64,000 nt of DNA, taken from Actinomadura sp. 6K520 (GTDB taxonomy: Bacteria > Actinomycetota > Actinomycetes > Streptosporangiales > Streptosporangiaceae). Numbering within the stretch: the first letter of the stretch is position 1; each line of letters begins with the position of its first letter. The stretch spans positions 1-64,000 of the forward strand of contig NZ_SMLC01000002.1 in the NCBI RefSeq assembly GCF_004349245.1, in the 5' to 3' direction. The notes below the pieces were generated by a model. The model saw only the letters and a list, made by a program, of their open reading frames with translations, was not told where the DNA came from and searched no databases. A program made the translations under genes and the position numbers. This document shows, piece by piece, positions 44,316-64,000 of the stretch.

Positions 44316-44735
44316 TCAGGCCGGGCGCACGAGCATGAGGGCGGTGGCCTCGACGACGTGGTCGCCCGCGCCGTCCACCGCCACCCAGCGGTAGTGCTGG
44401 ATGACCTTGCCGCCGCTCGTCTCGCGGGACTCGCCCGGGGTCAGCTCGACGTGCAGTGTCGTGCCCGCCTTGACCATCTTCCGGAAGCGCACCTCGCGCA
44501 GCTCGACCAGGGCGATGGCGTGGTCGAGCAGCCCCGACTGCTCCACCAGCCCGCCCATCAGCAGCAGGATGCCCTGCCCCGGCATCGGCGCGCGGGCGCC
44601 CTCGGCCCACTCGCGGGGGCCGGGGTTGAACAGCGGGTGGGTGTAGCCGCCGAGGCCGACGAGACCGTCGATGAGGGGCTGGGTCACCTCCACCGGCGGG
44701 GTGCTCGACGTCTCGCCGGGCGCCGCGGCCGTCAT
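44316..44735 (-). CDS. Hotdog-fold thioesterase/dehydratase-like protein
   Basis: 139 residues. GYTHPLFNPGPREWAEGARAPMPGQGILLLMGGLVEQSGLL is a MaoC/FAS1-dehydratase-like hotdog core with a possible catalytic His. The end HYRWVAVDGAGDHVVEATALMLV forms the last strands. It probably hydrates an enoyl-CoA or cleaves an acyl-CoA. Its ATG overlaps the stop of the crotonase gene (ATGA), making it the last gene of a three-gene unit in the catabolic island. Confidence 0.72.
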   Translation of the reverse strand: MTAAAPGETSSTPPVEVTQPLIDGLVGLGGYTHPLFNPGPREWAEGARAPMPGQGILLLMGGLVEQSGLLDHAIALVELREVRFRKMVKAGTTLHVELTPGESRETSGGKVIQHYRWVAVDGAGDHVVEATALMLVRPA

Positions 44736-45517
44736 CGGCCGTTCCAGACGGGACGGCGCTTCTCCACGTAGGCCCGGTATCCCTCGTCGGCGTCCGCGAC
44801 CTCCTCGTGGAAGCGGGTGAACAGCTCGCGTTCGAGGCGCAGGCCCTCCTCCAGCGTCACGTCCGGGGCCGCGTTCAGGAGCCGCTTGATGAACGCGGTC
44901 ACCGCGCGGGAGCGGTTGCCGAGCGCGTCGGTGAGGCGGGTGACCTCGTCCGGCAGCTCCGCCGGCGGGACGCTCGCGAGCGCGAGGCCCCAGTCGACCA
45001 TCTCTGGGCCGGTCAGCCAGCGGCCGGCGAGGAGCAGCGCGCGGGCGCGCTGGTCGCCGAGCTTGCGCGGGGCGCGCTGGGACGCGCCCGCGCCCGGCAC
45101 GACCCCGAAGTCGCTGTGCGTGTCGCCGACCCTGGCGTCGTCGGCGGCGATGACGAAGTCGCAGGCCAGCAGCAGCTCGAAACCGCCCGCGCGGGTCAGG
45201 CCGTTGATCGCGGCGACGCTCGGCAGCGGGCACGCCTCCAGCCGGTCGAGGAACGCGTGCAGGCGGCGGATGAACGGCAGGAACACGCCGGGCGGGTCGG
45301 CGAAGCAGTCGCCGAGGAAGCCGATGTCCATCCCGACGCAGAACGCCCGGCCCGTCCCGGTGATCACCAGGGAGGACAGCGAGTCGTCGCGCTCGGCGGC
45401 GTCCAGTGCGGCGTTCAGGCCGTCGAGCGTCTCCGGGGACAGGCTGTTCATCCGCTCGGGGCCGTTGAGCGTGATGGTCATGACCGAACCGGTCACCTTC
45501 GTATCGATCCTGGTCAT
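44732..45517 (-). CDS. Crotonase-family (enoyl-CoA hydratase/isomerase-like) protein
   Basis: 261 residues. The crotonase start SVMTITLNGPERMNSLSPETLDGLNAAL and the oxyanion-hole segments GRAFCVGMDI and GLTRAGGFELLLACD are present. The region holding the two hydratase Glu residues reads DTHSDFGVVPGAGASQRAPRKLG, without the first Glu at its usual place, so it may be an isomerase, hydrolase or ring-opening member and not a true hydratase. It is joined by ATGA overlaps to the genes on both sides. Confidence 0.83.
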   Translation of the reverse strand: MTRIDTKVTGSVMTITLNGPERMNSLSPETLDGLNAALDAAERDDSLSSLVITGTGRAFCVGMDIGFLGDCFADPPGVFLPFIRRLHAFLDRLEACPLPSVAAINGLTRAGGFELLLACDFVIAADDARVGDTHSDFGVVPGAGASQRAPRKLGDQRARALLLAGRWLTGPEMVDWGLALASVPPAELPDEVTRLTDALGNRSRAVTAFIKRLLNAAPDVTLEEGLRLERELFTRFHEEVADADEGYRAYVEKRRPVWNGR

Positions 45518-45693
45518 GAGCGTGCGGCTCCTTCGGTTTCGGTGCGGTCCCGGACGAAGACCAGCAGCGCCGGGGCGTAGCGGTCCGGGCAGCGCCGGTG
45601 CGGTTGCCCGTGCAGGCCGGGCAGGACGACGAGCCGTGCGCCGCGTGCCGGCTCCATCGAGTCGTACGCCTCCCGCCCGTTCACCCACGGCAT
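45514..45693 (-). pseudogene. Alpha/beta-hydrolase C-terminal remnant, 59 residues
   Basis: MPWVNGREAYDSM followed by GARLVVLPGLHGQPHRRCPDRYAPALLVFVRD looks like the last ~50 residues of an alpha/beta hydrolase, where the His of HGQPHR is the catalytic-His region. The nucleophile half is missing. It begins with ATG 45693 behind AGAGGG, or ATG 45726, and its TGA overlaps the crotonase ATG, so it is still the first reading frame of the operon. It is either a decayed gene kept for translational coupling or a small protein of new function. Confidence 0.5.
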
Positions 45694-45713
45694 CGCGGAC
45701 CCTCTGCAGGCGA

Positions 45714-45727
45714 ATACATCAGACATA
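45714..45727 (+). promoter_or_regulatory. Island operator site A1
   Basis: ATACATCAGACATA, the reference copy of the 14-bp motif found at all three control regions of the catabolic island. It lies 21 nt upstream of the ATG of the three-gene minus-strand operon. Confidence 0.55.
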
Positions 45728-45783
45728 AAGATAGCCTGCTGTCATGAGGTAATGTCAATGGACATAGTCCTGGTCGCAGGCGC

Positions 45784-45814: not shown

Positions 45815-45837
45815 TGACCATGTGGGGAGGGGGGAGC

Positions 45838-47010
45838 GTGCTCGGGACGAGACCGTTCGAGGAGCCTCCGGAACGCGGCGACCTGCGGGACATGGTCGGC
45901 TCGCTGCTCGCCCGGGAACTCCCCCCGGACCGCGCGCTCGCCCTCGACCGCGCGGGCCTGTTCGCCGCCGAAGCCTGGGCGGCCCTCGGCGCGGCCGGGC
46001 TGCTCGGCCTCGGCGGAGCCGAGTCCGCGGGCGGAACGGGCGGGACCGCCGGCGACGCGGTGGCGGTCACCGAGGAGATCGCCCGCGTCCTCCCCGGCCT
46101 GGCCGTCGACTACGTCACCTGCGGCATGGCCATGCGGATGCTGGGCCACGACGGCGGAGCGGCCGCGGCCGCCCGCGGCTGGCTGCCGCGGATCGCGTCC
46201 GGCGAGATGATCTGCTCGTTCGGGATGAGCGAACCCGACGTCGGCACCGACCTGCTGAACCTCCGCACGTCCGCCCGCGTCGAGGACGGACGCTGGGTGC
46301 TGCGGGGCCAGAAGCTCTGGATCTCCCTCGCCCACAAGGCCGGGATCGTGTTCGTGCTGTGCCGCACCGACCCGCCCGAGGAGAAGCGGCGGTCGCGGGG
46401 CCTCAGCGTGCTCGCCGTGCCGCTCGACCAGCCGGGCGTCACCGTCAACCGCGTCCACCTCGCCGGGATGCGCGCCGCCGGGACCTGCGAGATCTACTTC
46501 GACGACGCGGTCGCGCCGCTCGACCACCTCGTCGGCGAGCGGGGCCGCGGCATGGCGCTCCTCGCCCAGACACTCGACGTGGAACGCGTCCTGGCCGCCG
46601 GGATCAGCCTGGGCATCGGCCGCGCCGCCCTGGACCTGCACCTCGCTCACCTGCGAGAACGTGAGGCGTTCGGCGGGCCCATCGGCCGCTTCCAGGCGCT
46701 GCAGCACGCCGCCGCAGACTCGCTCGCCGACCTCTCGGCGTCCCGGGCGCTGGTGAACACCGCCGTCCGCGCCATCGAGGACGGCCGCCCGGCGACGGCG
46801 CTGACCGCGATGGCCAAGCTCGTCGCGGGCGAGTCGACGGCCCGCATCGTCGACCGCGGGATGCGCGCGATGGCCGCGCACGGCCTCGCCGAGGAGTCGG
46901 CGATGCAGATGTACTTCCGGGACGCCCGGCTCCAGCTGTTCAGTCCCGTGAGCAACGACATGATCCGCAACATCCTCGGCGAGTCGCTCGGCCTGCCGAG
47001 AAGCTACTGA
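45838..47010 (+). CDS. Acyl-CoA dehydrogenase
   Basis: 390 residues. The FAD/substrate segment FGMSEPDVGTDLLNLRTSARVEDGRWVLRGQKLWIS is canonical. The usual C-terminal Glu (YEGT type) is absent; the site reads LFSPVSNDMIRN. Instead LDVERVLAAG offers a Glu at the isovaleryl-CoA/long-chain dehydrogenase position, so it may act on branched or bulky acyl-CoAs. GTG 45838 is chosen because a strong ribosome site (GGGGAGGGGGG) precedes it and the mapped promoter would start near 45819; ATG 45814 is the longer alternative. It is first in a two-gene operon with the isochorismatase-like hydrolase. Confidence 0.86.
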   Translation: MLGTRPFEEPPERGDLRDMVGSLLARELPPDRALALDRAGLFAAEAWAALGAAGLLGLGGAESAGGTGGTAGDAVAVTEEIARVLPGLAVDYVTCGMAMRMLGHDGGAAAAARGWLPRIASGEMICSFGMSEPDVGTDLLNLRTSARVEDGRWVLRGQKLWISLAHKAGIVFVLCRTDPPEEKRRSRGLSVLAVPLDQPGVTVNRVHLAGMRAAGTCEIYFDDAVAPLDHLVGERGRGMALLAQTLDVERVLAAGISLGIGRAALDLHLAHLREREAFGGPIGRFQALQHAAADSLADLSASRALVNTAVRAIEDGRPATALTAMAKLVAGESTARIVDRGMRAMAAHGLAEESAMQMYFRDARLQLFSPVSNDMIRNILGESLGLPRSY

Positions 47011-47025
47011 GTCGGGAGGTCTCCG

Positions 47026-47628
47026 GTGGACATCACGAAAGAGAACACCGCGCTGCTGGTCGTCGACATGCAGAACAGCTTCACCGAGCCCAAGGGCTCC
47101 ATGGCGGCGATGGGACTGCCGCACGAGGAGCTCCGCCCCGCGATCGCGGGCTGCCGCACCCTGATCGACGCCGCGCACGCGGCCGGCGTCCCGGTGCTCT
47201 ACACCCGGTACGTCTTCCAGCCCGGCTACGCGGACGGCGGCCTGGTGCCGGACAGCATCGTCCCGGGCATCAAGGAGGTCGGCGCGCTCGCGGCGGGCAG
47301 CTGGGACGCGGAGATCTGCGCCGAGCTGGCCCCGGCCGAGGGCGACATCGTCATCGACAAGTCGCGGCCCAGCGCCTTCTACGGCACCCGCCTGGAGCCG
47401 ATCCTCACCGGCCTCGGCGTCCGCTCGCTGGTCATCTGCGGCGTGACCACGAACATCTGCGTCGAGACGACCGCGCGGGACGCGGGCCAGCGCGACTACG
47501 CCACCCACGTGATCAGCGACGCGACCGCGGAGTTCGACAAGGCCCGGCACGACTACGCGCTGCACGGGATCGGGTTCATCTTCGGCTGGGTCAACACGGT
47601 GGACGACGTCGTCCGCGCCTGGGCCTGA
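47026..47628 (+). CDS. Isochorismatase-family cysteine hydrolase
   Basis: 200 residues. The catalytic triad is D14 (LLVVDMQNSF), K112 (VIDKSRPSAF) and C145 (GVTTNICVE), with the expected cis-peptide region GVTT. Relatives include N-carbamoylsarcosine amidase, the ureidoacrylate amidase RutB and maleamate amidase, so hydrolysis of an amide or carbamate is likely. GTG 47026 has GGGAGG upstream and follows the dehydrogenase by 15 nt. With two luciferase-like oxygenases and a RidA protein in the island, a Rut-like role is conceivable. Confidence 0.87.
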   Translation: MDITKENTALLVVDMQNSFTEPKGSMAAMGLPHEELRPAIAGCRTLIDAAHAAGVPVLYTRYVFQPGYADGGLVPDSIVPGIKEVGALAAGSWDAEICAELAPAEGDIVIDKSRPSAFYGTRLEPILTGLGVRSLVICGVTTNICVETTARDAGQRDYATHVISDATAEFDKARHDYALHGIGFIFGWVNTVDDVVRAWA

Positions 47629-47732: not shown

Positions 47733-48626
47733 TCAGCGGGCGAGCGCGGCGACCAGAGCGCGGGTGGCGGCCCGCTCGTCGGGGGTGCCAAAGATCTTGA
47801 CGGCGAACGTGGTCACGCCCAGGTCGGCGAACGACCCGATCCGGGCGGCGACCGTGTCGGCGTCGCCGATCAGCGCCAGCCGGCCGGGCGTCTCGCAGCC
47901 CTCGCGGTCGAGCATCGCGCGGTAGGACGGCAGCGTGCCGTACCACTCCAGTTCCGCCTCGGCGCGGGCCAGGGCGGCGGGGGCGTCGCCGGTCACGCAG
48001 ACCGGCAGCGGGACGATGATCTCCGGGGCGGGGCGTCCGGCCTTGGCGGCGGCCTCCTGGATCGTCGGGATCGTGAGTTCCCGGAGGGTGCGCGGGCCGA
48101 CCATCCACGTGATGGTGCCGTCGGCGAGGGCACCGGTGATCTCCAGCATCTTCGGGCCGAGCGCGGCGACGAGGACGGGCGGCACCGGCGCGCCGGGGAC
48201 GTCCAGGTCGCCGCGGGCGGTCAGCACCTCGCCCCTGAAGCGGACGCGCTGGGTCAGCGCGCCGGTCAGCGCCGCCAGGTACTCGCGCATGTAGCGGGCC
48301 GGACGGTCGTACGACATGCCCCAGCACGGCTCGACCACGGACGGGTGGGACGGGCCGATGCCGAGCGCGAGCCGTCCGTCCACGAGCAGGTTGGTGGTCA
48401 GTGCCTGCTGGGCGAGGGCCATCGGGTGCCTCGGGTAGACGGGGACGACGGCCGTGCCGACCCGCAGCCCCGGCAGGTCGCGGGCGACCGCGCCGAGCAC
48501 GGTGAGCGTGTCGGTGCCGAACGCCTGCGTCAGCCAGTAGCCGTCGATGCCGTCCCGCGCCGCCGCGCGCAGGTCGGCGGCGGTCTCGCGGATGTCGCCG
48601 ACCTGGTCGAAGATCCCGATCTTCAC
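47733..48626 (-). CDS. Luciferase-like (F420-type) flavin oxidoreductase
   Basis: 297 residues. VKIGIFDQVGDIRETAADLRAAARDGIDGYWLTQAFGTDTLTVLGAVARDLPGLRVGTAVVPVYPRHPMALAQQALTT-type TIM-barrel start and LGIGPSHPSVVEPCWG match F420-dependent luciferase-like monooxygenases/dehydrogenases of actinobacteria. Cofactor choice (F420 or FMN) is inferred from the family. Substrate unknown. GTG 48626 overlaps the stop of the crotonase gene upstream (GTGA). It is last in the ligase operon. Confidence 0.84.
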   Translation of the reverse strand: MKIGIFDQVGDIRETAADLRAAARDGIDGYWLTQAFGTDTLTVLGAVARDLPGLRVGTAVVPVYPRHPMALAQQALTTNLLVDGRLALGIGPSHPSVVEPCWGMSYDRPARYMREYLAALTGALTQRVRFRGEVLTARGDLDVPGAPVPPVLVAALGPKMLEITGALADGTITWMVGPRTLRELTIPTIQEAAAKAGRPAPEIIVPLPVCVTGDAPAALARAEAELEWYGTLPSYRAMLDREGCETPGRLALIGDADTVAARIGSFADLGVTTFAVKIFGTPDERAATRALVAALAR

Positions 48627-49372
48627 GAGCCGGCCCCGGACCGGAACGCGAGCAGGTCGCGGCCGGACGCCCGCATGAGGAGCGCCAGCCCGAGCGCCTC
48701 GGCGCGGGACCGCTGGTCCTCGACGGCCGTCCAGATGGTCTCCAGGCTGCCGGCCAGGATCTCGGGCGGGTGCTGCGCCATCACGTGCGCGATCTCCATG
48801 GCGCGCGGGACGAGGTCCTCCAGCGGGACGACCTCGGTGACCAGGCCCAGTTCGCGGGCCCGTTCCGCGCCCAGCCGGTACGCGCGGCCGCTGGCGACCA
48901 TGCGGGTGACCTCGGTGAGCGGCAGCCGGCTGAGCAGGCCGACCGCCTCGACCGGGTTGGCCAGGCCCACGTCGACGTGGGTGTCGAAGAACGTCGCGTT
49001 GTCCGAGCAGAGGATCACGTCGGCGTCGTTGACGAAGTGCCATCCGCCGGCGCAGCAGTGGCCGTTGACCGCGACGATGATCGGCTTGAAGACGCGCAGG
49101 TCGCGGGACGTGAGCGCGACCCGGCCGTCCTCGTCCAGGGACGGGCTGGACACGCCGCTGGCGATGGTGTCGTCCACGTCGAGCCCGGTGGAGAAGCTCC
49201 GGTCGCCCGCGCCGGTCAGCACCGCGACGCGCAGGCCGCCGTCGTCGCGGAACGTCCGCCAGACCTCGCGCAGCTCCCGCACCATCCGGGCGTCGTAGGC
49301 GTTGAGCACCTCGGGCCGGTTCATCGTGACGAGCAGGACGTGCCCGTCCCGGGTGACGTCGAGGGTGTTCAC
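48623..49372 (-). CDS. Crotonase-family (enoyl-CoA hydratase-like) protein
   Basis: 249 residues. VTMNRPEVLNAYDARMVRELREVW, the oxyanion-hole pieces RSFSTGLDVDD and GHCCAGGWHFVNDADVILCSD, and FFDTHVDVGLANPVEAVGLLSRLP define a crotonase. The Glu pattern is again not that of a classical hydratase (DTHVDVG), as in the crotonase at 44732, so both may share a related non-standard reaction. GTGA overlaps join it to the genes on both sides. Confidence 0.83.
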   Translation of the reverse strand: MNTLDVTRDGHVLLVTMNRPEVLNAYDARMVRELREVWRTFRDDGGLRVAVLTGAGDRSFSTGLDVDDTIASGVSSPSLDEDGRVALTSRDLRVFKPIIVAVNGHCCAGGWHFVNDADVILCSDNATFFDTHVDVGLANPVEAVGLLSRLPLTEVTRMVASGRAYRLGAERARELGLVTEVVPLEDLVPRAMEIAHVMAQHPPEILAGSLETIWTAVEDQRSRAEALGLALLMRASGRDLLAFRSGAGS

Positions 49373-49869
49373 GTGTCCTCCGCGATCGGCTTGAGCAGGT
49401 AGCCGCGGCGCATGGTGAGGACGGCCGTGCCGTCCTGCTTGCGGACGACGTCGCGGACCCGGCCCACGAACGCGGACCCGCCCGGCGTCGGCTCCAGGGT
49501 GTGCACCTCGACGTCCACGGTGATCGTGTCGTTCTCGAACACGGGTGCCTCGTAGCGCACCTCGTCGATGCCGAGGGCCGCGTGGCAGTCGAGGCCCGCC
49601 GCCGCCCAGCTCGCGTACATCGTGGGCGAGCTCAGCCCGGCCGCGATCGCGAGCAGGCAGGGGCCGCCGAGGATGCGGCGGCCGAACCCGGTCCCGGACA
49701 TGTACACGTCGTCGGTGTGCAGCGGGCCGTTCTCCCACGTCGCGTTGATGATCGCGGCGAAGTCGCCGGAGGTGAGGGTGCGGCCCGGGGTGCGCAGCGT
49801 GGCACCGGCGGCGAACGCCGCGGGCAGGACGGGCTTCAGGTCGGGCTTCGGGCCGGTCAACGCGCTCAC
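49369..49869 (-). CDS. MaoC-like hotdog dehydratase
   Basis: 166 residues. RTLTSGDFAAIINATWENGPLHTDDVYMSGTGFGRRILGGPCLLAIAAGL is the MaoC hydratase core, with the Asp (SGDF) and His (PLHTDD) at the usual positions. It should hydrate a trans-2-enoyl-CoA. Start GTG 49869 overlaps the ligase stop and its own stop overlaps the crotonase start. Confidence 0.84.
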   Translation of the reverse strand: MSALTGPKPDLKPVLPAAFAAGATLRTPGRTLTSGDFAAIINATWENGPLHTDDVYMSGTGFGRRILGGPCLLAIAAGLSSPTMYASWAAAGLDCHAALGIDEVRYEAPVFENDTITVDVEVHTLEPTPGGSAFVGRVRDVVRKQDGTAVLTMRRGYLLKPIAEDT

Positions 49870-55626: not shown

Positions 55627-56123
55627 GTCCCCGTCTCCAGCGATACGTAGATGATGGTCTCCTCGTTCTCCGCGAGCAGGTCCCCGTCCTGCTGCGTGTA
55701 CTTCGCCCGCGAGGTGATGATCAGCATTTCCGCGCCGGCCCGGTTCCGCTTGCCGGCCACGTCGGTGATCTCCCAGGTGGCGGTGACGACGTCGGACGGG
55801 AGGATCCGGCGGTGGAACACGTAGCGGTTGCCGCCGCGGACCTGCCGGGTGCCGGGGAGGTGGATGCCCCAGTGGTGGCCCGCGTGGCCGTCCGGGTCGA
55901 TCGGCAGGTTCGCGTACTGGTTCGTCTCGCAGATCAGCGTCGGCGGCGCGGTCACGTCGGGCAGGCCCTGCGCCCGCGCGTACTCCGGGTCGGAGTACAG
56001 CGGGTTGTGGTCGCCGACGGCCAGGCCGAAGTAGCGGCCCGCCGCGGCGCCGAACGGCTCGGGTGCGGTGTAGACCTTCTTCCGGCCGACCAGCGCGCGC
56101 ATCTCGTCGGTGAGCAGCGTCAT
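55623..56123 (-). CDS. FAS1-dehydratase-like hotdog subunit
   Basis: 166 residues. VYTAPEPFGAAAGRYFGLAVGDHNPLYSDPEYARAQGLPDVTAPPTLICE is the N-terminal MaoC-like dehydratase domain, and GNRYVFHRRILPSDVVTATWEITDVAGKRNRAG the second part. Such halves normally work with a second hotdog subunit, here the next gene. It should hydrate the enoyl-CoA that the Ltp2/DUF35 pair then cleaves. ATG 56123 overlaps the stop of the triple-RidA gene. Confidence 0.84.
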   Translation of the reverse strand: MTLLTDEMRALVGRKKVYTAPEPFGAAAGRYFGLAVGDHNPLYSDPEYARAQGLPDVTAPPTLICETNQYANLPIDPDGHAGHHWGIHLPGTRQVRGGNRYVFHRRILPSDVVTATWEITDVAGKRNRAGAEMLIITSRAKYTQQDGDLLAENEETIIYVSLETGT

Positions 56124-57352: not shown

Positions 57353-57462
57353 CGGCTGCCTACAGCGTGGAGACCCCGTCCTTCAGGGCGGGGAGGAGAA
57401 GCGGAACGGTGCGGCATGGTGACCCTCCGGGGTTTGTCGGTGGCGGTCGGTATGTTGCTGGC

Positions 57463-58656
57463 GTGTCCCGGTACCGGCTGTGCCCAACCCCCGTCCAGGA
57501 GGCGGGGCTGCTGGAGCACTGCGGACGCGCCCGGTATGTGTGGAACCTGGCCGTGGAACAGCACGCCTGGTGGACGCCGAGCCGGGGACCCGCACCGGGG
57601 TATGTCGCGCAGGCCCGCCAGTTGACCGAGGCCCGCGCCGCCAACCCGTGGCTGGCGGCCGGTTCGCAGACGGTCCAGCAGCAGGCCCTGCGCGATTTCG
57701 CGCAGGCCATGGCGAACTTCTTCAAAGGGACGCACCGGCGGCCGACATGGCGGAAGGCCGGACGGCACGAGGGATTCCGGATCGTCGGTCGGCGCGGCAG
57801 GCAATGGGATGTGCGGCGCGTGTCCCGCAAGGTTGGTGAGGTGCGGGTCCCGAAGGTGGGGTGGGTGCGGTTGCGCTGGTCGCGGCCCGTCCCAGCCGGA
57901 GTGAAGTCGTTCCGGATCACCCGCGACCGCGCCGGACGCTGGCACATCGCGTTCGCCGCGATCCCCGACCCGACCCCCGCACCCGGCAACGGGGAGGCGG
58001 TGGGCGTAGACCGGGGCGTGGCGGTGTCGGCGGCGCTGTCCACCGGGGAACTCCTGCACGCCCCCGGCCTCACGCGGGCCGAGGCCGCGCGGCTGCGGCG
58101 GCTGCACCGCAGGCTTGCCCGCGCGGAGAAGGGTTCGAACCGCCGCGCCCGGATCAAGGCCGCCGTCGCCCGGCTGAAGGCACGGGAGGCGGACCGGCGC
58201 CGCGACTGGGTGGAGAAGACCACCACGACCCTGGCACGCGGCTACGACGTCATCGCCGTGGAGGACCTGAACGTGCGGGGCATGACCCGCTCGGCCAGAG
58301 GCACCGTCGAAGCACCGGGCGTGAATGTGCGGCAGAAGGCCGGGCTGAACCGGGCCATCCTGGGCAGCGGGTGGGGGCGGCTGGTGGCCCGGCTGGAGCA
58401 CAAAGCGCCCGGCCGCGTCGTCAAGATCGATCCGCGTTACACGTCGCAGACCTGCCATGCCTGCGGGCACCGCGCACCGCAGAACCGCGAGAGTCAAGCG
58501 GTATTGCGGTGCGTGGCCTGTGGGCACCAGGCCAACGCCGACGTCAATGCGGCCATCAACATCCGAACCGCCGCAGGGCATGCGGTGGCAGCGCGGGAAG
58601 GGCCACGGGTTACCGGGCCGGTGCACCGCGAACCTCAACTCATCCTCCTCGCGTAG
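57463..58656 (+). CDS. tnpB: TnpB RNA-guided endonuclease-like transposase protein
   Basis: 397 residues, intact. N-terminal helix-turn-helix region (YRLCPTPVQEAGLLEHCGRARYVWNLAV). The RuvC triad is complete: D183 (VGVDRGV), E267 (VEDLNVRGM) and D360 (ANADVNAAINI). The zinc ribbon has TCHACG and RCVACG. TnpB proteins are omega-RNA-guided nucleases that preserve the element at its donor site and are ancestors of Cas12. GTG 57463 lies 6 nt after TATGTT, so it is likely leaderless and transcribed from inside the element. Confidence 0.9.
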   Translation: MSRYRLCPTPVQEAGLLEHCGRARYVWNLAVEQHAWWTPSRGPAPGYVAQARQLTEARAANPWLAAGSQTVQQQALRDFAQAMANFFKGTHRRPTWRKAGRHEGFRIVGRRGRQWDVRRVSRKVGEVRVPKVGWVRLRWSRPVPAGVKSFRITRDRAGRWHIAFAAIPDPTPAPGNGEAVGVDRGVAVSAALSTGELLHAPGLTRAEAARLRRLHRRLARAEKGSNRRARIKAAVARLKAREADRRRDWVEKTTTTLARGYDVIAVEDLNVRGMTRSARGTVEAPGVNVRQKAGLNRAILGSGWGRLVARLEHKAPGRVVKIDPRYTSQTCHACGHRAPQNRESQAVLRCVACGHQANADVNAAINIRTAAGHAVAAREGPRVTGPVHREPQLILLA

Positions 58657-58692
58657 GTCGAAGGGTTGGAATCCCCCGCCTTCAGGCGGGGG
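58500..58692 (+). ncRNA. Probable omega-RNA overlapping the tnpB 3' end
   Basis: In related elements the guide RNA scaffold is cut from the 3' part of the tnpB transcript and ends at the right-end hairpin, with the guide taken from flanking DNA (here starting AGGACGTCAACGG). The 5' limit given is approximate. The call rests on family knowledge and the hairpin at 58673-58692. Confidence 0.4.
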
Positions 58693-58698
58693 AGGACG

Positions 58699-60084
58699 TC
58701 AACGGTTCTCCTGCCGGTTGAGCTGGGCGAGGCCGGCGGCGGCCCGCATGACGGCGGCGGCGTCCGGCTGCGCGCCGAGCGACTCGACGGTCCGCGCGAA
58801 CCCCTCCGCCTCCGCCGCCGGGACCCCGGCGGTGCCCGCGAACTTGGCGAGCAGTGCCGCGCGGCCGAGCGGGCGGTCCCCGCCGCCCGCGCTGCGCGGG
58901 ACCGAGCCCGTCACCGCGCGGCCGCCGGCGAGGGTGATCGTGACGTGGCCGGGCGCGTCGGCGGCGGCGACGCCGGGCGGGCCGGTGACGTCCCAGCGGA
59001 CGCGTGCGGCGAGCCGGGTCACCTCGGGCCGGGCGATCGAGCGCGGCTCGAAGGTGTCCAGCGCCAGTCCCCCGTCGGTGATCAGCGCCGCGACCGTCCA
59101 GGGCAGCGAGAACTTCGCGGCGTACGGGGTCGCGGGCCGGGTCAGGTCGCGCGAGGTGTCGCAGACGGTCGGCGCCGAGTCCGGGTGGACCACGGCGTGG
59201 ATGCTCGCGATCTCCGCCGGGACGAGCCGCTCGCGGTCCATCGCGTCCAGGACCGCGTCGATCGTGGCGTGCGAGAGCTGGCACGCCGCGTACGGCTTGA
59301 TCCCGATCCGGGTGGTCTCCCAGCGTTCCCCGAGCCCGGCCACGATGGACGCCGGGGCCGCGGGCTTGCCGGAGAGGGCGTCGAACACGCCGTGCGGCCC
59401 GTCGAAGACGGTGTCCGGGCCGGTCGCGCCCGCCGCCGCGAGCCGCGCCGCGATGATCCCGGACTGCGCCGCGAACCCCGGGTGCAGCTGCTTGGTGGAC
59501 GCGCCGGTGCCGAGGAAGGCGAGCAGGCCGCCCGCCTGGCTGCCCGCGATGCCGAGCGCATTGGCCGCCCGTTCCTCGTCCAGCGCGAGGAGCCGCGCGG
59601 CGACCAGGGCGGACGAGAAGACCCCGGCGACCATGGTCGCGTGCAGGCCGCGGGCGTGGAAGCCGTGCGGCGCGGCGGCCGCGACGCGGCAGGCCGTCTC
59701 GTACCCGGCGACCGCCGCGAGCAGGATCTCCCGCCCGGTGGCGCCGGTCTGCTGGCCGGCGGCGAACGCGGCGGGCAGCACGACCGCGGTCGCGTGCACC
59801 AGCCCGCCCGCGTGCGTGTCGTCGAAGTCGAGGGCGTGCACGAGCGTGCCGTTCGCGAGCGCGGCGGCGGGCGCGGACAGCAGCTCGCCGGTGCCGAGCA
59901 GCGCCGCCTCCGGCGGGCCGCCGAGCCCCCGCGCCACCTCGATCGCGGGCGCCGCCGCGCCCGTCCGGAGGGCGCCGAGCGCGGTGCCGAACCCGTCGAG
60001 CAGGTGCCGTGTCGCGGCGGCGCTCACCGTTTCGGGCACCTCGGCCAGGCCGAGCGCCCAGGCGGCCAGCTCCCGTGCGATCAT
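58699..60084 (-). CDS. MmgE/PrpD-family protein
   Basis: 461 residues. The family start ELAAWALGLAEVPETVSAAATRHLLDGFGTALG, LVHALDFDDTHAGGLVHATAVVLPAAFAAGQQTGATGREILLA and KQLHPGFAAQSGIIAARLAAAGATGP are typical. Relatives include 2-methylcitrate dehydratase and cis-aconitate decarboxylase, so dehydration or decarboxylation of a branched tricarboxylic or hydroxy acid is plausible. It is last of a four-gene operon; its stop is 7 nt from the right hairpin of the tnpB element. ATG 60084 overlaps the CoA-transferase stop. Confidence 0.85.
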   Translation of the reverse strand: MIARELAAWALGLAEVPETVSAAATRHLLDGFGTALGALRTGAAAPAIEVARGLGGPPEAALLGTGELLSAPAAALANGTLVHALDFDDTHAGGLVHATAVVLPAAFAAGQQTGATGREILLAAVAGYETACRVAAAAPHGFHARGLHATMVAGVFSSALVAARLLALDEERAANALGIAGSQAGGLLAFLGTGASTKQLHPGFAAQSGIIAARLAAAGATGPDTVFDGPHGVFDALSGKPAAPASIVAGLGERWETTRIGIKPYAACQLSHATIDAVLDAMDRERLVPAEIASIHAVVHPDSAPTVCDTSRDLTRPATPYAAKFSLPWTVAALITDGGLALDTFEPRSIARPEVTRLAARVRWDVTGPPGVAAADAPGHVTITLAGGRAVTGSVPRSAGGGDRPLGRAALLAKFAGTAGVPAAEAEGFARTVESLGAQPDAAAVMRAAAGLAQLNRQENR

Positions 60085-61343
60085 CGTGACGCAGCCTCCG
60101 GCTCCGTGTCGGCGGACGCGGCGGGCGCGGTCTCCGCGGCGGGCGCGTCGCCGAACGCTCCCCCCGCCCGCAGCCGCTCCACCGTGGCGTCGTCATACCC
60201 GGCGATCTCCCGGACGACCAGGTCGAAGTCCTCGTTGCGGCGCGGCGCCCTGCGGTACTCGGGCGGCTCGGCGCCCACCCGGACCGGCGAGGCGAGCTGC
60301 TCCACCGTCCCGAACCGCGGATGCTCGGTCGTCACCCGCAGCCCGCGGGCCCTGGTGTGCTCCTCCCGCATGGCCTGCTCGACGTCGTTGATGGGGCCGC
60401 AGGGGATGGCCGCGGCGTACAGGTCCGCCAGCCACTCCGCCACGGTGCGCCGCCGGAAGATCTCCTCAAGCAGCGGGATCAGCGTGTCCTTGTTGCGCCG
60501 CCGGTCGGCGAACGAGCCGAACCCCGACTCGGCCCCGGCCCATTCGGGATGGCCGACGACGGAGGCCAGCCGCGTCCAGAACTTCTCCTTCGCGCAGCCG
60601 ACGATGAACCAGCCGTCGCTGGCCTCGAACGCCTGGAACGGCACCAGCGACGGGTGCGCCGAGTGGCTCGTCCGCTCCGGGGTGAACCCGGCGTTCAGGT
60701 GCCAGACCGCCGGGTAGGTCAGCAGCCCGATCGCGGTGTCGTACAGGCTGACGTCGCAGTCCATGCCGACGCCGTCGCGGCGCGCCGCGTGCAGCCCGGC
60801 CAGCAGCGAGAGCGCGGCGACGAACCCGCCGGAGTAGTCGACCAGCGACAGCCCCGACTTGGTGGGCGGGCCGTCCGGCTCACCGGTCAGGTCCATCCAG
60901 CCGGCGAGGCCCTGCAGGACGTAGTCGTAGCCCGGCTCCTCGCTGCGCGGCCCGGTCATGCCGAACCCCGTGAGCGAGCAGCACACGATGGCCGGGTTCA
61001 GGTGCTTCAGGTCGTCGTAGGTGATGCCGATCTTCTTCGGGACGTCGCCGCGCAGGTTGGAGTACACGGCGTCGGACACCTTCACCAGGTCCTCGAAGAC
61101 CCGGCGGCCCGCGTCCGTCGACAGGTCGAGGGACAGGCTGCGCTTGTTGCGGTTGAACGTCTCGAAGAACAGGGAGTCCTCGCCCTCGCCGTACGGGGGG
61201 ACGTAGCGGCCGACGTCGCCGCCGGACCGGGGCTCCTCGATCTTGATCACCTCGGCGCCGAGGTCGGCGAGGTGCACGCTGCCGAACGGGCCGGCGCCGT
61301 ACTGCTCGACGGCGATGATGCGGACGTCTTCCAGAGGCTTCAC
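60081..61343 (-). CDS. CaiB/BaiF-type (class III) CoA-transferase
   Basis: 420 residues. VRIIAVEQYGAGPFGSVHLADLGAEVIKIEEPRSGGDVGR is the family start, LSLDLSTDAGRRVFEDLV and SLTGFGMTGPRSEEPGYDYVLQGLAGWMDLTGEPDGPP follow, and the nucleophile is Asp169 in SLVDYSGG. It moves CoA between acids without free energy loss, which would let the pathway activate its acid at the expense of another thioester. The C-terminal ~30 residues are Ala/Glu/Thr-rich. GTG 61343 overlaps the upstream stop. Confidence 0.9.
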   Translation of the reverse strand: MKPLEDVRIIAVEQYGAGPFGSVHLADLGAEVIKIEEPRSGGDVGRYVPPYGEGEDSLFFETFNRNKRSLSLDLSTDAGRRVFEDLVKVSDAVYSNLRGDVPKKIGITYDDLKHLNPAIVCCSLTGFGMTGPRSEEPGYDYVLQGLAGWMDLTGEPDGPPTKSGLSLVDYSGGFVAALSLLAGLHAARRDGVGMDCDVSLYDTAIGLLTYPAVWHLNAGFTPERTSHSAHPSLVPFQAFEASDGWFIVGCAKEKFWTRLASVVGHPEWAGAESGFGSFADRRRNKDTLIPLLEEIFRRRTVAEWLADLYAAAIPCGPINDVEQAMREEHTRARGLRVTTEHPRFGTVEQLASPVRVGAEPPEYRRAPRRNEDFDLVVREIAGYDDATVERLRAGGAFGDAPAAETAPAASADTEPEAASR

Positions 61344-62374
61344 GAAGCGCTCCCGGTGAGGTCGGGCAGCAGCGCCAGGAGCTCGTCCTGGGCGGCGCGT
61401 GTCTCGGCGGCGCTGAGGCCGTGGGTCGGCGGGCTGAGCTTCACCGAGTCGGCGAGGCCCGCGTAGCCGGCGATGCGCTCGGCGACCTCGTCGCGTCCGC
61501 CCGCCATCGTGAGCGCGTCGATCATCTCGGCGGAGACCGTCTCGGCGAGGTGCTCGGCACCGGTGCCGTTGCGGAACGCGCCGAGCACGGCCTGCTGCTG
61601 CTCGGCCAGCCCGTGGAAGGCGAAGAAGTCGGTGTAGCTGCGGACGCTGGCGTAGAAGCCGACGAGCCCGGAGACGCGGCGCAGCGCGGTGGCGCGGTCG
61701 TCCGACACCGAGCAGCACGCGGAGACGACGACGTCGACGTCCGCGCGCCGCTTGCCCTCCGTCCGGGAGATCCCGGCCTCCAGCTCCGGCAGCACCCGCT
61801 CGGCGAGGTAGCGCGGCGAGCACAGCTCGTGGCTGATCCAGCCGTCGCCGATCTCCCCGGCGAGCCGGGTCATGGCCGGGCCCATCGCGGCGAGGTGGAC
61901 GGGGATGCCGGTGCGGCGGACGGCGAACGGGCGCTGGTAGCCGCGGATCCGCATCGGCTCCTCCTCGCCCGGCAGGTCGATCGGCTCGCCGGTGGTGCAC
62001 GTCTCCCAGAAGTGGCGGACGTTGCGGACGACCTCGCGCATGTGCCGGACGGGCTTGCCGAACGGCACGTTGTGCCAGTCCTCGTTGAGCCGCTGCACGC
62101 CGGACCCGAGGCCGAGGATGAACCGCCCCTCGGACAGGTCGTCCAGGTCCAGCGCCTCCAGCGCGGTGATCATGGGGCTGCGGGTGAACGCCAGCGCGAT
62201 CCCGGTGCCGATCCGCGCCCGCCCGGTCGCGGCGGCGAGCGCCGCCGCGGCGACCGTGGCGCTGCGGTGCAGCTCGGGCACCCAGATGACCTCGGCGCCG
62301 CCCGCCTCGGCGCGGCGGGCCGCGTCGGTCAGCTCCGCGAGCGTCTCCCCCCAGGGCGCGAAGGTGATTCTCAT
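61340..62374 (-). CDS. Luciferase-like (F420-type) monooxygenase/oxidoreductase
   Basis: 344 residues. MRITFAPWGETLAELTDAARRAEAGGAEVIWVPELHRSATVAAAALAAAT and SEGRFILGLGSGVQRLNEDWHNVPFGKPVRHMREVVR are those of luciferase-like F420-dependent enzymes. It could oxidise a cyclic ketone or open a ring, or act as an F420-linked dehydrogenase. It is the second such enzyme in the island, only distantly like the one at 47733. ATGA and GTGA overlaps link it to its neighbours. Confidence 0.85.
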   Translation of the reverse strand: MRITFAPWGETLAELTDAARRAEAGGAEVIWVPELHRSATVAAAALAAATGRARIGTGIALAFTRSPMITALEALDLDDLSEGRFILGLGSGVQRLNEDWHNVPFGKPVRHMREVVRNVRHFWETCTTGEPIDLPGEEEPMRIRGYQRPFAVRRTGIPVHLAAMGPAMTRLAGEIGDGWISHELCSPRYLAERVLPELEAGISRTEGKRRADVDVVVSACCSVSDDRATALRRVSGLVGFYASVRSYTDFFAFHGLAEQQQAVLGAFRNGTGAEHLAETVSAEMIDALTMAGGRDEVAERIAGYAGLADSVKLSPPTHGLSAAETRAAQDELLALLPDLTGSAS

Positions 62375-62907
62375 CCGCGCTCGTCCTCGGTGTCGAGGGT
62401 GAGCGGCTTCTTCGCCTCCGGGAACAGGTCGTTCAGCGGCTCGGCGCCCCGCCTGTAGACGTAGAAGGTGCGGCGGAACGTGCAGACCTCGTCGCCGTGC
62501 TGGTTCAGGGTGCGGGTGCGGATGGTGACGATGCCGGCGTGCGGGCGGCTCGACGACTCGCGCTTGTCCAGCACGATCGACTCGCTGAACAGCGTGTCCC
62601 CGGCGAAGACGGGGTGCGGGAGGTTGATGTCCTCCCAGCCGAGGTTGGCGAACGCGTTCTGCGTGGTGTCGATGACGCTCTGCCCGACGGCGATCGCGAC
62701 GGTGAGGGTGGACACGACCAGCGGCTTGCCGAACTCGGACTTCGCGGCGTACTCGCCGTTGAAGTGCATCTGGTTCGTGTTCATCGTCAGCAGCGTGAAC
62801 CAGGTGTTGTCGCTCTCGGTGACCGTGCGCCCGAGGGGATGCCGGTAGACGTCGCCCACCTCGAAGTCCTCGTAGAACCGCCCGTTCCACCCGTCCTTGA
62901 GCGTCAT
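62371..62907 (-). CDS. MaoC-family dehydratase (mesaconyl-CoA hydratase-like)
   Basis: 178 residues. GRFYEDFEVGDVYRHPLGRTVTESDNTWFTLLTMNTNQMHFNGEYAAKSEFGKPLVVSTLTVAIAVGQSV matches the (R)-hydratase type whose members act on mesaconyl-CoA or methylmalyl-like substrates, with TESDN and HFN near the catalytic Asp/His. It pairs logically with the CitE-like lyase, as mesaconyl-CoA hydratase does with a malyl-CoA-type lyase. It heads the four-gene operon; GAGAGGAC precedes ATG 62907. Confidence 0.88.
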   Translation of the reverse strand: MTLKDGWNGRFYEDFEVGDVYRHPLGRTVTESDNTWFTLLTMNTNQMHFNGEYAAKSEFGKPLVVSTLTVAIAVGQSVIDTTQNAFANLGWEDINLPHPVFAGDTLFSESIVLDKRESSSRPHAGIVTIRTRTLNQHGDEVCTFRRTFYVYRRGAEPLNDLFPEAKKPLTLDTEDERG

Positions 62908-62938
62908 GGCCGTCCTCTCGCATCATACTGGGAGTCGT

Positions 62939-62952
62939 TAAAGTCAGACATA
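62939..62952 (+). promoter_or_regulatory. Island operator site C
   Basis: TAAAGTCAGACATA; the last nine bases are identical to site A1. It lies 32 nt upstream of the mesaconyl-CoA-hydratase-like operon on the minus strand, in the 202-nt gap after the E1-like gene. Confidence 0.5.
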
Positions 62953-63109
62953 TTGATTCTAGAGCAAGGTCACGGTCGATGTCCAAGCCGGGGCGGCCGC
63001 GCGATCGAGTCCCATTATGGGCTGCACCTGCACTTTTGCGGCGCCGGCCGCGCCGGCCGCGGCCATCGGCGGTCAGGGTGCGGTTCCGCGAAACATCAGA
63101 GGTTTGCGG

Positions 63110-64000
63110 TCAGGCGTCCGCGAGGTGAAGTGCGGCCAACGCGGCGTTGACGATCGCGCCGGGGCGCAGGTCGTGCAGCTCGTACAGGTCCCGGACGCTC
63201 CCCGACTGCCCGAACTCGTCCACGCCCAGCGGGACCGCGGGCACGCCCAGCGCGGAACCGAGCCACGACAGCGCGTGCGAGGCCGCGTCCTGGACGGTCA
63301 CGACCGGCGCCCGCTCGGCGAACGCGGCGCGCAGCGCGCCCGGCCCCGGCCGCGCCGTCGCCGTGCGCACGCCCTGCCGCAGGCCGCCCTGCCACGCGCG
63401 GTAGAGCCGGCCGGCGGACGTGACGTCCACGACATGGGCGGCGACGCCCTCGTCGCCGAGCTCCTCGGCCGCCTCCAGGACCTCCGGCATGACCGCGCCC
63501 GACGCCGCGAGGTGCACGACCGGCGCGCCCTCGTCCCGCAGCGCCGACCGGGCGTGGTGGGCGTCCCGGAGGCGGTAGGCGCCCGCGAGCGCCTGCGCCC
63601 GGAGCTCCGCGTCGCCGAGCCGTGCCCGCGCCGCCGCGAACGGCGCCTGGTCGATCGGCCGGGTCGTCAGCCGGAAGTAGTACGCGCCCTCGTCGTCGTC
63701 CGCCCCGCCGGGGTCGGCGGCGATCCGGCCGAGCGCGTCGCACAGCAGCCAGTCCAGCGCCGCGCCGTAGGCGGGCTCGACGAACGTGACGTCCGGCAGT
63801 TCGATCCCGACCGACACCGTGATGGACGACTGGTGCGCGCCGCCCTCCGGGGCGAGGGAGATGCCCGACGGAGTGCCCGCCACGACGAACCGCGACCCCG
63901 AGTACGCCCCGTACAGGAAGGCGTCCAGCCCGCGCAGGACGAACGGGTCGTACACCGTGCCGACGGGCAGCAGCGGCTGGTCCGACAGGTCCCACGCCAG
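63110..64000 (-). CDS. Transketolase/pyruvate dehydrogenase E1-like protein, C-terminal part
   Basis: The gene runs off the right edge; 296 C-terminal residues are visible. VVAGTPSGISLAPEGGAHQSSITVSVGIELPDVTFVEPAYGAALDWLLCDALGRIA resembles the second half (pyrimidine and C-terminal domains) of homodimeric AceE-type E1 proteins, and VDEFGQSGSVRDLYELHDLRPGAIVNAALAAL is the usual transketolase C-terminal end. It uses thiamine diphosphate to decarboxylate a 2-oxo acid. Whether it serves the catabolic island or central metabolism cannot be told from this fragment. Confidence 0.78.
   Translation of the reverse strand: MAWDLSDQPLLPVGTVYDPFVLRGLDAFLYGAYSGSRFVVAGTPSGISLAPEGGAHQSSITVSVGIELPDVTFVEPAYGAALDWLLCDALGRIAADPGGADDDEGAYYFRLTTRPIDQAPFAAARARLGDAELRAQALAGAYRLRDAHHARSALRDEGAPVVHLAASGAVMPEVLEAAEELGDEGVAAHVVDVTSAGRLYRAWQGGLRQGVRTATARPGPGALRAAFAERAPVVTVQDAASHALSWLGSALGVPAVPLGVDEFGQSGSVRDLYELHDLRPGAIVNAALAALHLADA

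What the first reader, a model, noticed from the sequence alone, without database searches (positions are those of the whole stretch)
44316..64000. An unassigned CoA-dependent degradation island with mixed chemistry
The genes combine ligase, CoA-transferase, two dehydrogenases, two unusual crotonases, five hotdog proteins, a DUF35/Ltp2 pair, CitE, MmgE/PrpD, two luciferase-like oxygenases, an amidase-like hydrolase and triple RidA. Mesaconyl-CoA-hydratase-like plus CitE-like plus MmgE/PrpD suggests a branched dicarboxylic or citramalyl-type intermediate. I cannot match the set to a described pathway. It may be an undescribed route for a cyclic or branched compound.
Basis: inference. Interest (0 to 1): 0.75.

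Follow-up and report, generated by a model that had tools for sequence, protein, structure and literature searches.

The report
Conserved operon linked to bilin-reductase genes
A set of eleven breakdown enzymes is kept in the same order across many actinobacteria and tends to occur in genomes that carry relatives of a plant chlorophyll-breakdown enzyme, so it may be part of an undescribed bacterial route for digesting pieces of chlorophyll-like or heme-like pigments.

Summary
Of 40 relatives with enough sequence, 32 keep all eleven in order, 39 at least ten, none breaks the order. The flanking genes, the ligase at 49866 included, are variable accessories. No known pathway fits: curated cut-offs of itaconate, methylcitrate, Rut and steroid models are missed. 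One module works like steroid side-chain removal (acyl-CoA dehydrogenase, MaoC pair, Ltp2-like aldolase, DUF35).

The new lead lies outside the window. The operon marker co-occurs with red-chlorophyll-catabolite-reductase (RCCR)-like genes: 9 of 12 marker-positive versus 6 of 382 other genomes of the class; 9 of 10 versus 0 of 139 in one family. A steroid marker shows no link. The RCCR-like genes head a conserved eight-gene operon, often 1-24 kb away, here 65 kb away on the same contig. Best explanation, moderate confidence: CoA-dependent breakdown of pyrrole or maleimide acids from linear tetrapyrroles. Against it: 21 of 48 operon-bearing genomes show no RCCR-like match, and the neighbouring Rieske oxygenase is not the plant type. 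Substrate untested.

The parts
62371..62907 (-). core gene 1: MaoC-type hydratase, nearest to itaconyl-CoA/mesaconyl-CoA hydratases (RipB/Ich-like)
   Evidence: Pfam MC_hydratase 76.2 bits; NCBIfam RipB_Ich 194.2 bits, under its cut-off 340
61340..62374 (-). core gene 2: luciferase-like, probably F420-dependent oxidoreductase
   Evidence: Bac_luciferase; closest solved structures are F420-dependent Mer reductases; an NADPH-F420 reductase family lies nearby in 5 relatives (one member scored)
60081..61343 (-). core gene 3: family III CoA-transferase
   Evidence: CoA_transf_3 392 bits; closest PDB families include formyl-CoA transferase and succinate-hydroxymethylglutarate CoA-transferase
58699..60084 (-). 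core gene 4: MmgE/PrpD-family hydro-lyase/isomerase
   Evidence: Pfam MmgE_PrpD N and C; PDB: iminodisuccinate epimerase, then IRG1/cis-aconitate decarboxylases
57353..58702 (+). IS605-type element with tnpB only (57463-58656), inserted between core genes 4 and 5 in this genome
   Evidence: OrfB_IS605 over cut-off, NF040570 guided_TnpB over cut-off; no match in any of the 79 scanned loci; ends read by eye from the junction comparison; two more near-full-length copies at 80% in the genome
56120..57352 (-). core gene 5: triple RidA-like protein (pseudo-trimer, chorismatase-like overall fold)
   Evidence: Pfam Ribonuc_L-PSP; model m7eda5d06877a pLDDT 88.9; Foldseek; the expected RidA arginine not seen in the three motif windows
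55623..56123 (-). core gene 6: FAS1-DH-type hotdog, probably the non-catalytic partner of a hydratase heterodimer
   Evidence: Pfam FAS1_DH_region; catalytic Dx4H motif not in the usual place (by eye)
55171..55626 (-). core gene 7: MaoC-type enoyl-CoA hydratase, catalytic subunit
   Evidence: Pfam MaoC; D35-x4-H40
54026..55174 (-). core gene 8: Ltp2-like thiolase-fold aldolase
   Evidence: PRK06158 over cut-off (463.3 vs 421); Ltp2 6ok1 among PDB hits; YD(S/A)F tyrosine in 46 of 46 family members, no N-terminal thiolase cysteine seen
53559..54029 (-). core gene 9: DUF35/ChsH2-type OB-fold partner
   Evidence: OB_ChsH2_C 65.1 bits, zf-ChsH2 31.9 bits; cysteines 35, 38, 58, 61
52398..53558 (-). 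core gene 10: acyl-CoA dehydrogenase
   Evidence: Acyl-CoA_dh N, M and C domains; FadE3 4iv6 404 bits
51511..52350 (-). core gene 11: CitE-like acyl-CoA lyase
   Evidence: HpcH_HpaI; RipC_Ccl 139 bits, under its cut-off 375
49866..51383 (-). accessory: AMP-dependent acyl-CoA ligase
   Evidence: AMP-binding 267.3 bits; full-length in 19 of 54 operon loci, partial in 2
49369..49869 (-). accessory: MaoC-like hotdog without the catalytic motif
   Evidence: present in 5 relatives
48623..49372 (-). accessory: crotonase-fold protein
   Evidence: ECH_1 127.4 bits
47733..48626 (-). accessory: F420-type luciferase-like oxidoreductase
   Evidence: TIGR03564 312.1 bits, over cut-off 234.25
47026..47628 (+). 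accessory: isochorismatase-fold hydrolase, amidase-like
   Evidence: Isochorismatase 163.4 bits; RutB 128.7 bits, under its cut-off 377.95
45838..47010 (+). accessory: acyl-CoA dehydrogenase
45514..45693 (-). remnant: start of a cupin gene fused by deletion to the end of an alpha/beta-hydrolase gene
   Evidence: residues 1-16 100% to the cupin and 12-52 73% to the neighbouring hydrolase of L003
44316..45517 (-). accessory pair: MaoC-like protein (44316-44735) and crotonase (44732-45517)
   Evidence: pair next to the core or the ligase in several genera

Best explanation
The conserved 11-gene operon is the CoA-dependent lower part of a catabolic route for acids that come from broken-down linear tetrapyrroles (chlorophyll- or heme-derived bilins), that is pyrrole- or maleimide-type acids such as hematinic acid. 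A second operon elsewhere (on this contig at 128013-134770, beyond the window) with an RCCR-like reductase, a distant second one, a Rieske oxygenase, a hydrolase and an Asp/Glu-racemase-family enzyme (perhaps a maleate isomerase) would supply them. Inferred steps: the CoA-transferase (or accessory ligase) puts CoA on a propionate-like side chain; the dehydrogenase makes the enoyl-CoA; the MaoC pair adds water; the Ltp2-like/DUF35 aldolase releases acetyl-CoA (or propionyl-CoA) and an aldehyde or ketone, as in steroid side-chain removal. The remaining dialkyl-maleate-type acid is hydrated or isomerised by MmgE/PrpD, charged with CoA, hydrated by the Ich-like enzyme and cut by the CitE-like lyase to an oxo-acid and an acyl-CoA. 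The F420-type enzyme would do a reduction; the role of the triple RidA protein is open. Shown here: families, order, co-occurrence, proximity, folds, key residues. Not shown: substrate, any reaction.
For: Order conserved in 39 of 40 judgeable loci (>=10 of 11 genes). Operon marker (triple RidA protein, E<=1e-20) in 12 of 394 class genomes; PF06405 RCC_reductase in 15 of 394; both in 9; Fisher p 1.8e-12; without the two weakest marker hits 7 of 10 vs 8 of 384, p 2.6e-9. In the family of G092: marker 10 of 149, PF06405 9 of 149, all nine among the ten, p 1.3e-13. PF06405 in 27 of 48 named operon-bearing genomes; a second marker of the RCCR operon in 30 of 48 and in 12 of 392 class genomes, nine of these marker-positive for the core. 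Steroid marker HsaA: 2 of 12 versus 56 of 382, p 0.55. Gap between operon and nearest RCCR-like gene 1.1-24 kb in 14 of 15 measured loci; same contig in this genome. RCCR-like profile hits plant RCCR (6.5e-18) and bilin reductase GtPEBB (6.3e-9); Foldseek's 18 hits at E<=0.001 are all RCCR, PebB, PcyA or phytochromobilin synthase (from a low-confidence model). Eight-gene RCCR operon in the same order in 12 of 13 fetched genomes and in this one. PrpB-like lyase family in 8 of 15 fetched RCCR stretches, though not in this genome's. Aldolase features. Hematinic acid and maleimides are cited as found in senescent leaves and lake sediments (PMC7318184, passages; that study itself found hematinic acid but no maleimides).
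Against: 21 of 48 operon-bearing genomes have no PF06405 match and 18 of 48 lack the second marker, some of them isolates (Micromonospora L015-L017, Aeromicrobium L018), so the operon can do without it. Six of 15 RCCR-positive class genomes lack the core marker. The genomes are related, so the Fisher values overstate independence; in the class and family samples only the marker gene, not the whole operon, was looked for. No Staygreen (Mg-dechelatase) homologue in 24 genomes, in a search whose control did not ring. The Rieske protein is VanA/NdmA/SxtT-type, with no PaO domain reported. In the RCCR-like proteins the residue aligned to plant Glu154 is mostly Ala and Phe218 mostly Leu (counted by hand; residue roles recalled). 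No porphyrin-specific gene was recognised in 44316-64000. In this genome the RCCR operon is 65 kb away.
Confidence: 0.4

Rival explanations
1. The operon degrades another nitrogen-containing ring or cyclic imide/lactam (not from tetrapyrroles); the RCCR-like enzymes act on a different small conjugated substrate. The CoA chemistry is as above.
For: Around the core in relatives lie an allantoinase/dihydropyrimidinase-like amidohydrolase, a PF04199 cyclase, an Asp/Glu-racemase-family enzyme and isochorismatase-fold hydrolases; 21 of 48 operon genomes show no PF06405 match.
Against: Does not explain why enzymes of the bilin-reductase fold occur in 9 of 10 marker-positive genomes of one family and 0 of 139 others.
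Confidence: 0.27
2. A side-chain pathway for steroids, hopanoids or other terpenoids, homologous to the igr operon (ChsE-ChsH-Ltp2).
For: Dehydrogenase + MaoC pair + DUF35 + Ltp2-like aldolase is the igr module.
Against: No association with the steroid marker HsaA (2 of 12 vs 56 of 382); this genome's two HsaA-type matches (one over the cut-off) are on other contigs, C437 and C4; DUF35 is a separate protein, and the YDHF histidine is Ser or Ala; MmgE/PrpD, CitE and RidA-like genes are unexplained.
Confidence: 0.1
3. A dicarboxylate pathway of the itaconate/mesaconate/citramalate kind with accessory genes.
For: CoA-transferase III, Ich-like, CitE-like and MmgE/PrpD genes.
Against: The itaconate- and mesaconate-type models are under their curated cut-offs (RipB 194.2 of 340, RipC 139 of 375, succinyl-CoA:mesaconate CoA-transferase 236 of 700); it leaves the dehydrogenase-hydratase-aldolase module and the RCCR link unexplained.
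Confidence: 0.1
4. A biosynthetic operon that makes or tailors a pyrrole- or bilin-like metabolite.
For: The triple RidA protein resembles chorismatases in overall fold; thiolase-fold + DUF35 pairs also build C-C bonds (PhlC is among the hits).
Against: Dehydrogenase, lyase and aldolase, FadR/IclR-type regulators (identified by eye) and Liv-type transporters nearby (by eye) look catabolic.
Confidence: 0.06

Closest known systems
igr operon / cholesterol and bile-acid side-chain removal (ChsE1/E2, ChsH1/H2, Ltp2; Shy/Sal)
   Same: Acyl-CoA dehydrogenase, MaoC pair, DUF35 and thiolase-fold aldolase with the catalytic YDxF tyrosine, in one operon
   Different: DUF35 stands alone instead of being fused to MaoC; YD(S/A)F instead of YDHF or YDCY; six further core genes (Ich-like, F420-type, CoA-transferase, MmgE/PrpD, RidA-like, CitE-like); no link with the steroid marker
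Itaconate degradation (RipABC / Ict-Ich-Ccl)
   Same: CoA-transferase III, MaoC hydratase and CitE-like lyase in one operon
   Different: The matched models are under their curated cut-offs; eight further core genes
Anaerobic benzylsuccinate beta-oxidation (bbs)
   Same: Family III CoA-transferase, acyl-CoA dehydrogenase, DUF35 + thiolase-fold pair (BbsA/BbsB models hit under cut-off)
   Different: No BbsCD-type gene in the core (BbsCD recalled); active site aldolase-like rather than thiolase-like
Plant chlorophyll breakdown (PaO-RCCR) and ferredoxin-dependent bilin reductases
   Same: The co-occurring operon encodes RCCR/bilin-reductase-fold proteins next to a Rieske oxygenase
   Different: Rieske protein is VanA-type, not PaO; Glu154 equivalent is mostly Ala; bacterial, catabolic neighbourhood; activity unknown
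Methylcitrate cycle / dimethylmalate pathway
   Same: MmgE/PrpD plus, in relatives, a PrpB-like lyase
   Different: PrpD and PrpB models under cut-off (40.7 of 950 for the window protein; up to 223.2 of 354.4 for the lyase)

Membership tests
igr-type steroid side-chain aldolase module (Ltp2/ChsH2) | Catalytic tyrosine in a YDxF motif of the aldolase | tested here: met
   Tyr280; YDSF in 44 and YDAF in 2 of 46 family members, the window's included; motif from PMC12329534 (passages)
igr-type steroid side-chain aldolase module (Ltp2/ChsH2) | His (Ltp2) or Cys (Sal) in the third place of the motif | tested here: not met
   Ser in 44, Ala in 2 of 46
igr-type steroid side-chain aldolase module (Ltp2/ChsH2) | Second catalytic tyrosine (Tyr344 of TcLtp2) | tested here: inconclusive
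   Tyr328 is invariant in the alignment but two places off by simple counting; no structural alignment made
igr-type steroid side-chain aldolase module (Ltp2/ChsH2) | DUF35 fused to a MaoC domain (ChsH2) | tested here: not met
   53559-54029 is a separate 156-aa protein
Steroid degradation | Genomic association with a steroid-ring gene | tested here: not met
   HsaA in 2 of 12 marker-positive vs 56 of 382 other genomes
Itaconate degradation (Ict-Ich-Ccl) | Proteins reach the curated model cut-offs | tested here: not met
   RipB 194.2/340, RipC 139/375, mesaconate CoA-transferase 236/700
Pyrimidine Rut pathway | RutB and RutC reach cut-offs, RutA-type monooxygenase | tested here: not met
   RutB 128.7/377.95, RutC 61.2/169.1; the luciferase-like proteins match F420 families, RutA not among the listed hits
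RCC reductase family (neighbour operon, not in window) | Pfam PF06405 over the gathering score | tested here: met
   45.8 bits (this genome) and 52.1 bits (L073) vs 24.9
RCC reductase family (neighbour operon, not in window) | Catalytic Asp291 and Glu154 of Arabidopsis RCCR (roles recalled) | tested here: inconclusive
   Asp291 aligns with invariant Asp235; Glu154 aligns with Ala111, which is nearly invariant (counted by hand on the alignment; columns)
RCC reductase family (neighbour operon, not in window) | Ferredoxin-dependent reduction of a linear tetrapyrrole | not testable with these tools
   needs protein
Pheophorbide a oxygenase | PaO C-terminal domain | tested here: not met
   VanA_C and Rieske only at E<=0.001
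RidA enamine deaminase | Catalytic arginine (recalled: Arg105 of E. coli RidA) | tested here: not met
   no conserved Arg at the expected place in the motif windows of the three units over 32 aligned members, judged by eye
TnpB (57463-58656) | NCBIfam guided_TnpB over cut-off | tested here: met
   252.9 vs 100 bits

The most novel reading that the evidence does not exclude
Actinobacteria possess a complete, undescribed pathway that mineralises chlorophyll- or heme-derived linear tetrapyrroles: an RCCR-like reductase/Rieske operon takes the bilin apart, and the window's operon strips the propionate side chains by aldol cleavage and feeds the dialkylmaleate remains into central metabolism as oxo-acids and acyl-CoA.
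Probability: 0.33. Interest if true: 0.92.

Novelty: new variant of a known kind. Interest (0 to 1): 0.72.

Why it matters
Chlorophyll is made and degraded on a 10^12-kg-per-year scale (PMC7318184, passage). Among the titles and abstract starts listed by the literature searches made here (capped lists of an open-access library) I saw no bacterial gene cluster for breaking its linear products down to central metabolites. If the link holds, the operon gives a marker, a set of knock-out targets and candidate substrates for that missing step. Even without it, it is a widely conserved, unassigned catabolic operon with a clean chemical logic.

Tried and rejected
Itaconate, Rut, methylcitrate, phenylacetate and steroid assignments: curated cut-offs or the association failed. 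Staygreen search in 24 operon genomes: nothing, control silent, uninformative. A 317-aa protein of the RCCR operon (contig 131672-132625) has no PDB relative at E<=5 and no Pfam match better than E 3.8. A second 258-aa protein there was recognised as a distant RCCR relative only by profile-profile comparison (97.4%, E 1.2e-11); a PDB profile search of it gave nothing sensible. The impression that the SDR of that operon resembles plant chlorophyll b reductase (NYC1/NOL) is recalled and untested; Pfam and NCBIfam give only generic SDR names among the rows shown. The RCCR-like structure model is low confidence (pLDDT 57.7); its matches are used only because they agree with the profile search. Paper searches returned plant or unrelated papers in the rows listed; I read passages only of PMC10151467, PMC6755814, PMC12329534, PMC7318184 and PMC4789205. 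On checking, a duplicate of the window's own protein was found in the alignment (47 rows, 46 distinct), and two class-sample marker hits (G241, G259, 42-45% identity, one with an in-frame stop) were found weaker than the rest; both counts are given with and without them.

Full report
What is there. Two things were missed: a tnpB gene at 57463-58656 (+) in the middle of the set, and a short remnant at 45514-45693. The gene at 63110, cut by the window's end, continues to 65488; its product (792 aa) looks like a transketolase/pyruvate-dehydrogenase E1 protein by eye only and is not counted as part.

Core and accessories. One scan of named bacterial genomes with the thiolase-like protein 54026-55174 found 103 relatives and kept the best 80, 79 distinct loci. 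Of these, 54 carry at least one of the two neighbouring genes 53559-54029 and 55171-55626; 40 of the 54 have enough sequence on both sides to judge the operon. In those 40, 32 have all eleven genes 62371-62907 to 51511-52350 in the same order and strand, 39 have at least ten, one (L035) has eight, and none breaks the order. The other 25 of the 79 loci are mostly proteobacterial by title, with the thiolase-like protein in other contexts. By record title, the carriers include Actinomadura, Nonomuraea, Streptosporangium, Micromonospora, Dactylosporangium, Nocardioides, Aeromicrobium, Mumia, Catellatospora, Actinoplanes and several actinobacterial MAGs. The genes 44316-51383 are accessories: the ligase is full-length in 19 of 54 loci and partial in two, and 47733-49869 were found only in five close relatives.

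Chemistry readable from the core. Genes 52398-56123 are an acyl-CoA dehydrogenase, a DUF35 protein, a thiolase-fold protein and two hotdog proteins, of which 55171-55626 has the catalytic Dx4H and 55623-56123 does not have it in the usual place (by eye). This is the composition of the module that removes steroid side chains by dehydrogenation, hydration and retro-aldol cleavage. The aldolase's base is a tyrosine in YDHF (Ltp2) or YDCY (Sal) (PMC12329534, passages). The window protein has Tyr280 in YDSF; the tyrosine is present in 46 of 46 family members, with Ser (44) or Ala (2) in third place, and the N-terminal region shows YAGGSV where thiolases carry their cysteine (the cysteine's place is recalled). 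An aldolase is therefore more likely than a thiolase. The other genes (CoA-transferase III, Ich-like MaoC, CitE-like lyase, MmgE/PrpD) fit a substituted dicarboxylate that is charged, hydrated and cut. None reaches the itaconate, mesaconate or methylcitrate cut-offs. The luciferase-like protein 61340-62374 is nearest to F420-dependent Mer reductases; in five relatives an NADPH-F420 reductase family lies downstream (one member scored, 233.5 vs cut-off 149.8). The RidA-like protein is a pseudo-trimer; its best full-length PDB matches are chorismatases, and the RidA arginine was not seen in the three motif windows.

The lead outside the window. In five Nocardioides loci (L026, L034, L038, L040, L073) a gene divergent from the operon belongs to one sequence family that matches RCC_reductase (PF06405; scored for L073, 52.1 vs 24.9 bits). 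I then asked whether this family tracks the operon. In a class-wide sample the operon marker (56120-57352, E<=1e-20) is in 12 of 394 genomes and PF06405 in 15 of 394; nine have both, against 6 of 382 without the marker (p 1.8e-12). The nine come from three families (f1, f5, f26). Two of the twelve marker hits (G241, G259) are only 42-45% identical and one has an in-frame stop; without them it is 7 of 10 against 8 of 384 (p 2.6e-9). In the family of G092 the marker is in 10 of 149 and PF06405 in 9 of 149, all among the ten (p 1.3e-13). The steroid marker HsaA, as a control in the same class sample, is in 2 of 12 against 56 of 382 (p 0.55). Only the marker, not the whole operon, was looked for in these samples. 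Of the operon-bearing named loci I gave 48 of 54 as handles (six left out, two of them second loci of the same genomes): PF06405 is in 27 of 48, and a second marker of the RCCR operon, the 317-aa protein, in 30 of 48 and in 12 of 392 class genomes, nine of them core-marker-positive (p 8.6e-14 if all twelve marker-positive genomes are among the 392, which the listing does not show). Relatedness makes all these p values too small.

Proximity. For 15 loci whose coordinates suggested the same contig, the gap between operon and nearest RCCR-like gene is 1.1-24.1 kb in 14 and 197 kb in one (L033). In this genome the RCCR-like gene is at 128013-128816 of the same contig, 65 kb from the operon.

What the RCCR-like genes are. 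A profile of 13 of them finds plant RCCR (6.5e-18), the bilin reductase GtPEBB (6.3e-9), phytochromobilin synthase (0.018) and PebA (0.95) among seven PDB hits at E<=1, one of which is unrelated (0.15). A low-confidence model (pLDDT 57.7) gives 18 Foldseek hits at E<=0.001, all of them RCCR, PebB, PcyA or phytochromobilin synthase. On the alignment, plant Asp291 falls on an invariant Asp and Glu154 on a nearly invariant Ala; the roles of these residues are recalled. PMC10151467 (passages) uses RCCRs as the outgroup of bilin reductases and describes pre-PcyA reductases in heterotrophic bacteria; the string 'actinobacteri' does not begin any word of its main text. The gene is first of eight in constant order (RCCR-like, hydrolase, Rieske, distant RCCR-like, 317-aa protein, SDR, membrane protein, Asp/Glu-racemase family) in 12 of 13 genomes fetched and in this one (13 of the 27 positive genomes were fetched; in G405 only the RCCR-like gene is there). 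Aldehyde dehydrogenases, an FAD monooxygenase and a nitrilase-like protein flank it in most of these and in this genome, and in 8 of 15 fetched stretches, not in this genome, a PrpB-like lyase. Several families of this genome's RCCR region sit beside the core operon in relatives, for example the IclR-like regulator in 10 loci and a membrane protein in nine.

Reading. Hematinic acid and alkylmaleimides are known breakdown products of chlorophyll and heme and are cited as found in leaves and lake sediments (PMC7318184, passages; that study found hematinic acid but could not detect maleimides). A propionate on a ring is what the dehydrogenase-hydratase-aldolase module could shorten by one acetyl-CoA, giving an aldehyde for the aldehyde dehydrogenases; imide hydrolysis would leave a dialkylmaleate, for which MmgE/PrpD, CoA-transferase, Ich-like and CitE-like or PrpB-like enzymes are suitable. 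This part is inference. Against it stand the 21 of 48 operon genomes without PF06405, the non-PaO Rieske protein, the lack of a Staygreen match (silent control), and the missing Glu154. I put 0.4 on the tetrapyrrole reading and about 0.27 on another N-heterocycle.

The insertion. Compared with L003 and L005, where core genes 4 and 5 overlap as ATGA, this genome carries 1,350 bp at 57353-58702 with TCAT on the left and TCAA at the right end (ends read by eye); a stop for gene 4 and the start of gene 5 are both kept. Two further near-full-length copies at 80% identity and five partial matches lie elsewhere in the genome. Since tnpB runs head-on to the operon, expression of genes 5 to 11 may be altered in this strain (inference).

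Noticed in passing
57353-58702 (+): tnpB-only IS605-type element inserted between two core genes, keeping a stop for one and the start of the other; two more near-full-length copies (80%) elsewhere in the genome.
   Followed up: yes
45514-45693 (-): Remnant made by a deletion that joined the start of a cupin gene to the end of the next alpha/beta-hydrolase gene; both families are present side by side in relatives such as L003 and L006.
   Followed up: yes
G000:C222:80148-93557, beyond the window: By eye, a separate N-heterocycle-type cluster: molybdenum hydroxylase subunits, amidohydrolase, isochorismatase-fold hydrolase, allantoinase-like hydrolase, TPP-enzyme halves and an ABC transporter.
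   Followed up: no
L041, L046: MAG records titled Bifidobacterium breve and Candidatus Melainabacteria carry large parts of this actinobacterial operon; the labels are probably wrong or the bins mixed.
   Followed up: no
G004, G032, G083 and other genomes of family f5: Very small genomes (1.0-1.7 Mb) with up to four RCC_reductase-family matches each, up to three of them over the cut-off; f5 includes the marker carriers G004 and G083.
   Followed up: no
L036 and L073; L022 and L023: Nocardioides soli has two core operon loci; N. alcanivorans has one plus a partial one on a 6-kb contig, which may be an assembly duplicate.
   Followed up: partly
56120-57352: Triple RidA-like protein whose predicted fold matches chorismatases over its length; an enzyme of unknown reaction conserved in the operon.
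   Followed up: partly
L013, L014, L019, L024, L029, L034, L035, L039, L045, L047, L049, L052: A second module (CoA-transferase III, PF04199 cyclase, another MmgE/PrpD, allantoinase-like amidohydrolase, IclR-type regulator) lies, whole or in part, near the core in these loci.
   Followed up: partly
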